This document shows positions 18,580 to 20,655 of a stretch of DNA of 56,523 nucleotides, one piece after another. Numbering within the stretch: position 1 is the first letter of the stretch; each line of letters opens with the position of its first letter. Below the pieces are notes generated by a model, which worked only from the letters and a program-made list of their open reading frames with translations, did not search any database and was not told the DNA's origin. Source of the DNA: Actinomycetes bacterium (lineage in GTDB: Bacteria > Actinomycetota > Acidimicrobiia > Acidimicrobiales > GCA-2861595); assembly GCA_023264975.1 (NCBI GenBank), contig JAHFUS010000020.1, forward strand, positions 1 through 56,523, in the 5' to 3' direction. Both the position numbers and the translations under genes were made by a program.

Positions 18580-18686
18580 CGTAGGCCGCCCCATCGGCGG
18601 TACCATCATGTCAGCACGTTGCAAGCAGCGGACGCTCTGTTCCGGGGGAGCGGGGCACTTCCAGGCTGGTGAGCGGGAGGATCGCG

Positions 18687-19271
18687 GTGAGCCACGGGAA
18701 CAGCCTCGGCGACGAGCGATCGTGGCTAGCGGCCATCGCCGCCCAGGCCGACGGCGCCATCGTCGGCAAGACCCTCGACGGCACCATCACGTGCTGGAAC
18801 GCAGGCGCTGAGCGCCTCTCCGGCTACCGGGCCGAGGAGATGCTCGGGCGCCACATCGGCGTGCTCGCCCCGCCCGATCGCAAGGACGAGGTCGAGCTGA
18901 TCCTGGCACGCGTCGCCTTGGGCGAGCGCCTCGAGCGCTACGAGACCATCCGCCGCACCAAGGACGGCCTGCGGATCACGGTGTGGATCGCCGTGGCGCC
19001 GCTGTACGACGACTCCGGCACGATCCCGGGCGCGTCTTCGATCGCCCGGGACGTGACCGCGATCGGCGGGCGGGTCGCCCACCTGGAGGCGCGGGTGGCC
19101 GAGCTCAGGGCCGCCTTCGCTGGCACGGCCAGCGAGATCGACGGAGGCCACGACGACCGTCCCGGCGTTGCCGGCCGTGACGGCGCGGCAGCGCCACGTC
19201 GTGGCCGCCCTGGCCCGGGGCGACCGCGTGCCGGCCCTCCCGGTTCGCACTATTGCGGGTGCGGTTCGTGA
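18687..19271 (+). CDS. PAS-domain sensor; C-terminal LuxR-like part apparently frameshifted
   Basis: 194 residues from GTG at 18687, six bases after GGGAGG. A PAS domain covers about residues 15-125: ADGAIVGKTLDGTITCWNAGAERLSGYRAEEMLG, then PLYDDSGTIPGASSIARDVT. A short coiled coil (RVAHLEARVAELRAAFA) follows. After GTASEID the frame turns into Gly/Arg/Pro-rich sequence. In the +1 frame at that point (from about 19141) the sequence reads VTARQRHVVAALARGDRVP, which looks like the start of a LuxR-type helix-turn-helix. A PAS-coil-LuxR layout is common in actinobacteria. I therefore think a single-base frameshift has detached the DNA-binding part, which is itself incomplete. Confidence 0.6.
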   Translation: MSHGNSLGDERSWLAAIAAQADGAIVGKTLDGTITCWNAGAERLSGYRAEEMLGRHIGVLAPPDRKDEVELILARVALGERLERYETIRRTKDGLRITVWIAVAPLYDDSGTIPGASSIARDVTAIGGRVAHLEARVAELRAAFAGTASEIDGGHDDRPGVAGRDGAAAPRRGRPGPGRPRAGPPGSHYCGCGS

Positions 19272-19332
19272 CCGTCCGGGCGCCGCCAGTGGCGTCGCGG
19301 CCGACCGCACCACGGGGGGAAGGGGAGTGAAC

Positions 19333-19459
19333 ATGCCGTCGCGCAGCTCACTGATCGACAGCAGCATCTTCGAGACGCCCGACCGGGCCATCGACTTCAT
19401 CGCCAACGTGCTCGAGGCGTCCACCGAGTACTCGATCATCGGTGCCGACCTCGAAGGCG
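19333..19459 (+). pseudogene. 5' fragment of a PAS-domain sensor gene
   Basis: ATG at 19333 follows AGGGGAG at 5 bases. The peptide MPSRSSLIDSSIFETPDRAI, then DFIANVLEASTEYSIIGADLEG, is the typical opening of actinobacterial PAS proteins, where G.ILLWNEGARR should follow. Instead, homology stops after ADLEG at about 19459 and the sequence continues in a different frame as a transposase C-terminus. The rest of this PAS gene is absent from the window. Confidence 0.6.
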
Positions 19460-19808
19460 CAAGAACATCTCCGACGACCTCTTCCGCAAGGGCAAGCCCA
19501 ACGCGGCACGCAAGAAGGTCCAGCGCGGCCGCGGGTTCGTCAAGATGGTCAAGTGGCGCACCGGTTCCGAAGCGCGCATCTCCTGCCTCAAGCGTGACGC
19601 CGGGTGGCGCCGCACCCTCTTCGACGGTATCGAAGGCGCCCAGACGTGGTGTGGCTGGGGGGTCCTGTCGCAAAACGCCGTGAAGATCGCCAAGCTCATC
19701 GAGGCGGAACCACCGAAGACGTCCCCGAGCCAACGCGAAGAGTCCACCGCCGCCTCAGGCCGGGCCGGCGCCGGCCCACCCGGCAAACTCCGCGAGCCCG
19801 CAGCCTGA
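19460..19808 (+). mobile_element. Transposase remnant (C-terminal end of a DDE transposase)
   Basis: Read from about 19460, the frame gives KNISDDLFRKGKPNAARKKV, then KWRTGSEARISCLKRDAGWR and GAQTWCGWGVLSQNAVKIA, ending in a Ser/Gly/Pro-rich tail with TGA at 19806-19808. The R.GSE.RIS.LKR...WRR...GI.GA.TW.GWG...N pattern is the end of a DDE-type transposase, containing the final catalytic Glu. The N-terminal two thirds are missing, so it cannot be active. The left junction falls inside a PAS gene. I cannot assign the IS family. Only the last 87 residues carry an internal ATG (19545). Confidence 0.65.
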
Positions 19809-19810
19809 AC

Positions 19811-19897
19811 GTTTCTGTCCCTCGCTTCACCCGGCACGCCCAACGGCCCGGGAACGGGCCGAAAGGGCCGCCGGAAGTTGAAGCGAGGGATGGAAAC
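19811..19897. repeat. Large imperfect inverted repeat with a nested hairpin
   Basis: GTTTCTGTCCCTCGCTTCA (19811-19829) pairs with TGAAGCGAGGGATGGAAAC (19879-19897) with two mismatches out of 19. Inside it, CCGGC pairs with GCCGG and GGCCCG-GGAA-CGGGCC forms a further hairpin. It starts two bases after the transposase stop. It could be an IS end, a small mobile repeat or a structured RNA. Confidence 0.7.
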
Positions 19898-19974
19898 GGG
19901 CACCTACGGGCCGCTCGTGGTCACGACGGGGAGAGCCAGGACCCCGCCACGATCACTTTTTCGGGAGGAAGTAA

Positions 19975-20655
19975 CTAATGGACCTCGACCACCAGCGCCC
20001 GGTGGTCGCTGACCGGCGCCGCGTCGAGGACGTCCACCGACACTACTTCGAAGCCCTCGCTGAGGAAGTGGTCGATGCGATGGTGCGGCTCGGCCGCCGG
20101 GAAGGTCGGCAAGGTGGCGGAGGCCATGGCGTAGGACCGCTGCTGGATCGCCGGCGCGACCTGCTCGGGCTTCAGGTTGAGGTCGCCGATGAGCACCCGG
20201 GGCACGTGGCACCTGCGCAGCGCCACCAGCACGGCCTCCAGCTGGGGGGCCGCCTCCTCCGGGTGGACCGAGAGGTGGGCGGCAGCCACCGTGAAGACCC
20301 GGTCGTCGACGATCACGTCGGCCAGGACGAAGCTGCGGGGCTCGTGGTCGTGGCTGTGGCGCGGCAACGGCACCGTCTCGACCTGGTCGATGATGCCCCG
20401 CACGAACAGGGCGTTGCCGTAGCGGCCCCGGAGGCCGAGCTTGCGGGCCAGGCCGAAGTAGCCGGCCATGCCGGTCGCCTCGGCCACCGCCTTGGCCTGG
20501 TCGACACCGCCCGACCGGTGGGCCCGCACGTCGACCTCCTGGAGGGCGAGGACGTCCGCCTTCAAGCCGGCGCAGTACCTGGCCAGCGCGTCGGTAGCAA
20601 CCTTCGAGCCGTCCGGAGTGAGCCCGTGGTGGGTGTTGAAGCTGACGATCCTCAT
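19975..20655 (-). CDS. Endonuclease/exonuclease/phosphatase (EEP) family hydrolase
   Basis: 226 residues. The metal-dependent EEP motifs are all present: MRIVSFNTHHG, VLALQEVDVRA, TVAAAHLSVH, VLIGDLNLKP, HRIDHFLSEG and APVSDHRALVVEV. The final SDHR-A-L motif holds the catalytic Asp-His. Family members cut nucleic acids or phosphoesters; the substrate cannot be told from sequence. No signal peptide is visible, so it is probably cytoplasmic. It is divergent from the methyltransferase gene with 32 bases between starts. Confidence 0.85.
   Translation of the reverse strand: MRIVSFNTHHGLTPDGSKVATDALARYCAGLKADVLALQEVDVRAHRSGGVDQAKAVAEATGMAGYFGLARKLGLRGRYGNALFVRGIIDQVETVPLPRHSHDHEPRSFVLADVIVDDRVFTVAAAHLSVHPEEAAPQLEAVLVALRRCHVPRVLIGDLNLKPEQVAPAIQQRSYAMASATLPTFPAAEPHHRIDHFLSEGFEVVSVDVLDAAPVSDHRALVVEVH

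What the first reader, a model, noticed from the sequence alone, without database searches (positions are those of the whole stretch)
19811..19897. 19-bp imperfect inverted repeat with a nested tetraloop hairpin
GTTTCTGTCCCTCGCTTCA and its near complement flank a 49-base centre that itself folds (GGCCCG-GGAA-CGGGCC). It begins two bases after the transposase stop. The arms are less GC-rich than the surroundings. It could be a non-autonomous mobile repeat, the IS right end or a structured RNA. The arm ends GTTTC/GAAAC also resemble CRISPR repeat ends, but no array is present.
Basis: seen in the sequence. Interest (0 to 1): 0.55.

Follow-up and report, generated by a model that had tools for sequence, protein, structure and literature searches.

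The report
Conserved hairpin inside an insertion sequence
The palindrome is a long, evolutionarily maintained stem-loop that lies just after the transposase gene inside one branch of an actinobacterial insertion sequence, most likely as a transcript-ending or end-insulating hairpin; the copy seen here is left over in a broken element.

Summary
The inverted repeat is real (19810-19829 / 19879-19898, 18 of 20 complementary; RNA fold z = -9.2). It is not a CRISPR repeat, a free mobile repeat or the terminal repeat of the IS. It is an internal part of an ISNCY/IS5-like insertion sequence, between the transposase stop codon (19806-19808) and the right terminal repeat (19952-19977). The window holds a 5'-truncated remnant, single copy in its genome. 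Relatives show one clade ("group A", 19 distinct 3' regions) in which the transposase gained a 32-41 aa C-terminal tail and a hairpin of about 80-100 nt starting 0-2 nt after the stop codon; related "group B" elements (50) have neither. Hairpin sequence diverges while pairing is kept: own arms pair better than swapped arms (0 of 20,000 permutations), and 6 of 6 basal pairs show double changes. A covariance-model search of 298 genomes found confident hits only at IS right ends. Rfam has no match. Best mechanism: a U-less, bidirectional terminator/insulator hairpin protecting the IS right end (inferred; no expression data). RNA versus DNA action is unresolved; a partnership with the co-acquired tail is the bold alternative. 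New variant of a known kind; moderate interest.

The parts
19482..19805 (+). C-terminal fragment of an ISNCY/IS5-like transposase (5'-truncated), including the 34-aa tail with the motif AGAGPPG
   Evidence: NF033593 transpos_ISNCY_1 profile positions 375-443, E 1.8e-18 on window 19461-19805, below the curated cut-off because it is a fragment; homology to relatives from 19482; tail
19806..19808 (+). transposase stop codon TGA
19810..19898 (+). the hairpin: arms 19810-19829 and 19879-19898, 89 nt span in the predicted fold
   Evidence: covariance-model match 19810-19897, 75.9 bits (the window is in the model)
19845..19860 (+). apical stem-loop GGCCCG-GGAA-CGGGCC
19861..19864 (+). GAAA, partly unpaired A-rich internal loop 3' of the apical stem; A-rich loops recur at this place in relatives
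   Evidence: loop status from predicted folds
19952..19977 (-). right terminal inverted repeat of the IS, read inward TAGTTACTTCCTCCCGAAAAAGTGAT
   Evidence: matches the terminal repeats of relatives such as TAGTTACTTCGACCTGAAATAGTCGA; IS end 168 nt from the start of the stop codon

Best explanation
It is the conserved hairpin of the 3' untranslated region of an ISNCY/IS5-like insertion sequence, present only in one clade (group A) and gained together with a C-terminal extension of the transposase. Shown here: position inside the IS, clade restriction, tight spacing to the stop codon and to the IS end, and maintenance of base pairing while sequence drifts. Inferred: the hairpin acts in transcripts as a U-less ('I-shaped') terminator/insulator. 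Transcription of the transposase ends, or is strongly impeded, right after the stop codon so that polymerase does not run over the right terminal repeat and out into the host; being about equally stable on both strands it could also stop transcripts entering from the right. In the window the IS is dead (5' truncated) and the hairpin is a leftover.
For: Homologous hairpin at the same place in a relative with both IS ends present (G005/L067). In 19 distinct group A 3' regions the 100 nt after the stop have mean fold z -4.2 (17 of 19 below -2), against -0.18 for the 100 nt before the stop and -0.25 in 50 group B elements. The hairpin starts 0-2 nt after the stop in 18 of 18, spans 81-98 nt, and ends 68-84 nt before the IS end where that end was found (15 of 18). 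Own 5' and 3' arms pair at mean -31.9 against -24.3 kcal/mol when swapped between elements; 0 of 20,000 permutations as good. On alignment A4 (9 rows) 17 double-change cells against 7.9 in shuffles, 0 of 500. Group A is one clade (13 of 13 long tips, support 0.99). Sense and antisense folding energies differ by 0.7 kcal/mol on average. U-less hairpins within 50 bp of stop codons are described as the predominant intrinsic terminators of mycobacteria (passages of PMC12288462).
Against: No RNA-seq or termination data. [quoted passage not shown] Stems are longer than a terminator needs and are interrupted by recurring A-rich internal loops. Group B elements spread without any such hairpin. Two of 19 group A members fold poorly (L041 z -0.4, L045 z -1.4), and L041, L081 and L019 do not prefer their own arm (ranks 12, 13 and 9 of 18).
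Confidence: 0.5

Rival explanations
1. mRNA stabiliser or processing signal: the hairpin abutting the stop codon blocks 3'-5' exonucleases (REP-like) or is cut by an RNase, setting transposase mRNA level, without terminating transcription.
For: Very stable stem right after the stop; no U-tract; pairing maintained.
Against: Not distinguishable here from termination; a sense-strand bias of wobble pairs, expected for an RNA acting on one strand, is absent (28 G-U in sense folds, 57 in antisense folds).
Confidence: 0.2
2. DNA-level element: the palindrome extrudes or folds as single-stranded DNA, or is bound as a subterminal site by the transposase, possibly by the C-terminal tail that appeared with it.
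For: Hairpin and 32-41 aa tail arose once, in the same clade, inside the same roughly 170-nt expansion between the last conserved transposase motif and the IS end; no sense-strand preference in wobble pairs; spacing to the right end is tight. Right-end-only remnants keep it.
Against: Arm sequences diverge strongly between elements, unlike the terminal repeats, so recognition would have to be of shape only; no matching palindrome inside the left end: the hairpin at the start codon is a different one shared with group B.
Confidence: 0.15
3. Trans-acting structured RNA, for example a target guide as in IS110/IS1111 or a sponge RNA like Ssr9 of ISPpu9.
For: Conserved structured noncoding segment beside a transposase gene; A-rich loops.
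Against: Hairpins show no special complementarity to their own insertion-site flanks (permutation p 0.75, 9 elements); no promoter-like site found near it; no confident copies away from an IS end.
Confidence: 0.06
4. Neutral by-product: an inherited palindrome with no function, kept by gene conversion between arms or by recency.
For: Absent from group B without obvious cost; the window copy is in a dead IS.
Against: The group A transposases aligned are 59-65% identical to the first, and mean column identity of the hairpin alignments is 53-67%, yet pairing persists with double changes; 17 of 19 keep z below -2.
Confidence: 0.07
5. CRISPR repeat, or non-autonomous mobile repeat (MITE/REP-like).
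For: Arm ends GTTTC/GAAAC resemble CRISPR repeat ends (recalled, not tested against a repeat library).
Against: Only the two arms match in the whole genome at up to 3 mismatches; the element is single copy; all 9 hits with E below 1e-5 in 298 genomes lie at IS right ends.
Confidence: 0.02

Closest known systems
ISNCY family transposase model NF033593 (with weaker IS5 and IS1182 models; Pfam DUF772)
   Same: The relative's transposase N-terminal 329 aa match NF033593 over 13-328 (E 4.3e-80), then IS5 and IS1182 models, and Pfam DUF772; annotated rhizobial relatives are ISNCY-like ISRle10, ISRtr6, ISRm17 at about 30% identity
   Different: The fragments stay below the curated cut-off of 325 bits; the four rhizobial copies looked at show no comparable hairpin straight after the stop, by eye on single folds; group A carries an extra C-terminal tail
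U-less 'I-shaped' intrinsic terminators of mycobacteria (PMC12288462, passages read)
   Same: GC-rich hairpin without U-tail close after a stop codon
   Different: About 80-100 nt, with recurring internal loops, confined to one IS clade; termination not measured
Ssr9/Asr9 RNAs of ISPpu9 (PMC8450116, passages read)
   Same: Structured noncoding segment downstream of an IS transposase gene
   Different: Ssr9 is a separate sRNA of about 180 nt, found also as orphan copies and pairing with an antisense RNA; here no confident orphan copies and no evidence of a separate transcript
seekRNA of IS1111/IS110 (PMC11187229, search listing and abstract start only)
   Same: IS noncoding region with possible RNA structure
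   Different: Different transposase type; no match between hairpin and insertion flanks
IS1202 family, formerly in ISNCY (PMC10132070, passages read)
   Same: Shares only the historical ISNCY label
   Different: A member's transposase was modelled on TnsB with two HTH domains; here DUF772 and IS5-like matches

Membership tests
ISNCY/IS5-like insertion sequence (NF033593) | transposase homologous to the family model | tested here: met
   Window fragment E 1.8e-18; relative E 4.3e-80; both below the curated cut-off as fragments
ISNCY/IS5-like insertion sequence (NF033593) | terminal inverted repeats at both ends | tested here: inconclusive
   Right repeat present at 19952-19977; left repeat not found in the window, the copy being truncated; both repeats present in relatives
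ISNCY/IS5-like insertion sequence (NF033593) | target-site duplication | tested here: inconclusive
   Automatic search gave 0-3 nt matches only
Intrinsic terminator, canonical | GC-rich stem followed by a U-run | tested here: not met
   0 terminator-like sites in 19400-20100
Intrinsic terminator, U-less (I-shaped) | GC-rich hairpin within 50 bp of a stop codon, no U-run | tested here: met
   Hairpin starts 0-2 nt after the stop in 18 of 18; description from PMC12288462
Intrinsic terminator, U-less (I-shaped) | ends transcription | not testable with these tools
   needs RNA 3'-end data
CRISPR repeat | array of direct repeats with spacers | tested here: not met
   only the two inverted arms in the genome
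MITE / REP-like repeat | multiple free copies | tested here: not met
   single copy; confident relatives all at IS right ends
Known Rfam RNA family | match at gathering score | tested here: not met
   best of 4 weak hits 20.7 bits to microRNA model RF03976 with gathering score 75
IS110/IS1111 guide RNA | RNA segments matching target DNA | tested here: not met
   permutation p 0.75 with 9 elements; transposase matches ISNCY/IS5 models instead

The most novel reading that the evidence does not exclude
The tail and the hairpin are one co-acquired module: the transposase's new C-terminal tail binds the hairpin, either in its own just-translated mRNA (tethering the enzyme to its template and giving cis preference) or as folded DNA near the right end, so that a DDE insertion sequence works with a shape-recognised nucleic-acid partner whose sequence is free to drift.
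Probability: 0.08. Interest if true: 0.8.

Novelty: new variant of a known kind. Interest (0 to 1): 0.4.

Why it matters
It defines a structure-conserved subterminal hairpin, absent from Rfam, that marks one clade of an ill-characterised IS group and came with a new piece of transposase. It offers a natural pair (group A with, group B without) to ask how an IS protects its right end from transcription, whether U-less hairpins terminate in actinobacteria, and whether DDE transposases can use a structured nucleic acid. It also clears away the CRISPR and mobile-repeat readings.

Tried and rejected
CRISPR repeat: rejected by whole-genome pattern search. Mobile repeat: rejected by copy number and by the model search. 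Known RNA family: none at gathering score. Phages: no match; plasmids: 3 records with partial matches covering 28-31% of the query, E 0.8. Viral contigs: no transposase relative. Guide RNA: no match to flanks. Strand of action: G-U counts favour the antisense fold (57 against 28), unpaired A over T in sense folds favours sense (203 to 31), but group B 3' regions without a hairpin are also A-rich (849 A to 351 T): inconclusive. MAFFT plus RNAalifold on 18 diverged hairpins gave no pairs; pairwise pair-counting over all pairs with at least 66% identity suffered from misalignment and showed more broken than kept changes, and was not used; a home-made structure-aware alignment failed. Hence the alignment-free arm-swap test and a hand-set structure on 9 sequences, whose basal columns are partly out of register for the window, L012 and L021.

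Rows dropped before counts: of 84 rows, 27 had tails of 28-45 aa, 56 had tails of 8 aa or less, one (L086, tail 58) fell in neither group. L093 was removed from the long-tail set by hand because its open frame runs through its own terminal repeat (seen afterwards). Identical 3' regions were merged, giving 19 A and 50 B; L053 was left out of B as too short. L028 was dropped as a near-copy of L022. In the trees the window, L028 and L030 are absent as too short (16 of 19 A tips used). L045 was left out.

Full report
OBSERVATION. The palindrome is present where stated. Arms 19810-19829 and 19879-19898 are 20 nt, 90% complementary and 49 nt apart; the 19-nt arms agree at 17 of 19 positions. The centre holds GGCCCG-GGAA-CGGGCC (19845-19860). 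The RNA fold of 19805-19905 is -71.1 kcal/mol, z -9.18, 0 of 200 shuffles as stable. It is single copy: over the 3.78-Mb genome the only other match of the element with E below 0.01 is the element against its own reverse strand, and the arm pattern with up to 3 mismatches hits only the two arms. Rfam gives nothing near a gathering score.

WHERE IT LIES. A DNA search of the family found a second copy, 82% identical over query positions 16-97, in another genus (G005). There it stands directly downstream of an insertion-sequence transposase, in the same relative orientation, and the element is bounded by terminal repeats reading inward TTAGTTACTTCGACCTGAAATAG (left) and CTAACTACTTCGACCTGAAGAAC (right, reverse complement). 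The window has the same layout from the right: a 115-aa open stretch ending at TGA 19806-19808 that matches the C-terminus of the ISNCY family transposase model (E 1.8e-18), the hairpin, then the right terminal repeat TAGTTACTTCCTCCCGAAAAAGTGAT at 19952-19977. No left repeat and no further transposase sequence is found upstream, and the model finds no second copy in the genome: the window carries a 5'-truncated remnant.

RELATIVES. A scan of genome contigs with a 7-sequence transposase alignment returned 79 loci; with earlier loci this gave 84 C-terminal ends. They fall into two groups. Group A (19 distinct 3' regions; hosts of the named contigs are mostly Acidimicrobiia and unplaced metagenome actinobacteria): 32-41 aa beyond the last conserved motif, IS end 164-176 nt after the stop where found (15 of 19). 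Group B (50 distinct): 0-8 aa beyond the motif, IS end 81-143 nt after the stop where found (40 of 50). The 100 nt after the stop fold with mean z -4.2 in A (17 of 19 below -2); in B the stretch up to the terminal repeat has mean z -0.25 (1 of 50 below -2); the 100 nt before the stop are neutral in both. In 18 group A sequences the hairpin starts 0-2 nt after the stop and spans 81-98 nt, and in the 15 with a found IS end it stops 68-84 nt before it. On transposase trees group A is one clade: 13 of 13 long tips with no B inside, support 0.99; 16 of 16 with shorter ones added, support 0.87. So hairpin and tail most simply arose once, together, within the same expansion of about 170 nt. Four rhizobial relatives (three at about 30% identity, one more distant) show no such hairpin straight after the stop on single folds, judged by eye.

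IS IT MAINTAINED? Without any alignment, each element's 5' arm was paired in silico with every element's 3' arm: own arms -31.9, swapped arms -24.3 kcal/mol, 0 of 20,000 permutations as good. The own arm ranks first in 10 of 18, but poorly in L041, L081 and L019 (ranks 12, 13 and 9); a group B control shows no difference (-11.4 against -11.5, 40 elements). The permutation ignores relatedness; near relatives should pair well when swapped, which works against the result. On a 9-sequence alignment with a hand-set three-helix structure there are 17 cells with changes on both sides that keep the pair, against 7.9 in shuffles (0 of 500), and all 6 basal pairs have such changes. That alignment is partly out of register for the window subgroup, relatedness is not controlled, and about a quarter of its cells are unpaired. 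The counter-result: simple pairwise alignments gave more broken than kept changes, which I put down to misalignment.

IS IT CONFINED TO THE IS? A covariance model from those 9 sequences (R1) was run blind over 298 genomes of the order. Nine matches have E below 1e-5: seven are group A transposase ends already known (window, G082, G005, G271, G197, G188, G138) and two are new, G033:C79 and G054:C151. Both new ones are followed by the right terminal repeat 157 nt after the hairpin start. G033:C79 keeps only the end of the transposase (residues 443-492 of the query); G054:C151 has no recognisable transposase. The weaker matches that I looked at (10 loci, L138-L143 and L145-L148) have no repeat and no transposase and look like chance; the other weak matches were not inspected. 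The model also misses diverged members (L019 is hit only at E 0.44, L029 only on the opposite strand at E 0.21), so absence outside ISs is only as good as the model.

HOW IT MAY WORK. Shown: a subterminal, structure-conserved hairpin abutting the stop codon. Inferred: it is transcribed at the end of the transposase mRNA and acts as a U-less terminator or insulator. Position and absence of a T-run fit the I-shaped terminators that a review describes as predominant in mycobacteria, within 50 bp of stop codons (passages of PMC12288462); the same reference list holds a title claiming that mycobacterial polymerase requires a U-tract. Both strands fold almost equally well (mean difference 0.7 kcal/mol), which allows two-way action. 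Strand-specific tests did not settle RNA against DNA: G-U pairs are commoner in antisense folds (57 to 28), and A-rich loops on the sense strand are partly background because hairpin-less group B regions are A-rich too. The recurring A-rich loops (for example GCCGAAAAGG, GCCAAAACGG, GCCGAAAGGG) are more than a pure terminator needs, and the simultaneous gain of a transposase tail (a GTGPP-like motif in many members) keeps a tail-hairpin partnership open. A guide role is not supported (p 0.75, 9 elements).

THE OTHER END. At the 5' end of these ISs a different hairpin abuts and often pairs with the start codon (for example GATGGCC...GGCCATC-GTG). Fold z is below -2 in 10 of 11 group A and 20 of 34 group B copies tested. 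It probably hides the ribosome-binding site on transcripts entering from outside, a device known from other ISs (recalled; [quoted passage not shown] Group A genes are therefore bracketed by hairpins at start and stop.

NOVELTY. Searches of the paper library for hairpins or stem-loops tied to transposase stop codons, ISNCY, terminators and right ends listed nothing whose title or abstract start describes this element; apart from the three papers read in passages only listings were seen. Hairpins and structured RNAs in ISs are known in kind; this clade-specific, stop-codon-abutting, covarying hairpin is a new variant. In the window itself it is a relic.

Noticed in passing
5' ends of relatives, e.g. 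L067/L014 (G005), L019, L049, L075: A second hairpin abuts and often pairs with the transposase start codon; fold z below -2 in 10 of 11 group A and 20 of 34 group B copies. Likely blocks translation of read-in transcripts.
   Followed up: partly
window 19975-20655 (-): An endonuclease/exonuclease/phosphatase-family gene (PF03372, E 4.6e-18) ends with a TAG that is the first three bases of the IS right terminal repeat: the insertion supplies its stop codon.
   Followed up: no
window 19332-19481: A start-like stretch (MPSRSSLIDSSIFETPDRAIDFIANVLEASTEYSIIGADLEG) without Pfam match lies up against the IS fragment; the junction looks like a deletion or truncation point, close to a PAS-domain gene at 18669-19271.
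   Followed up: no
L134 (G033:C79), L137 (G054:C151), window: Three right-end-only remnants of group A elements keep hairpin plus right terminal repeat while most or all of the transposase is gone.
   Followed up: partly
L043: Two group B copies, one on each strand, with C-terminal ends facing each other and overlapping terminal repeats, as if one IS had inserted into the end of another.
   Followed up: no
L045 (contig labelled Acidobacteriaceae bacterium BOG_194): Group A element on a 3.1-kb contig assigned to Acidobacteriota; horizontal transfer or mis-binning. The terminal-repeat sequence recurs just past its right end.
   Followed up: no
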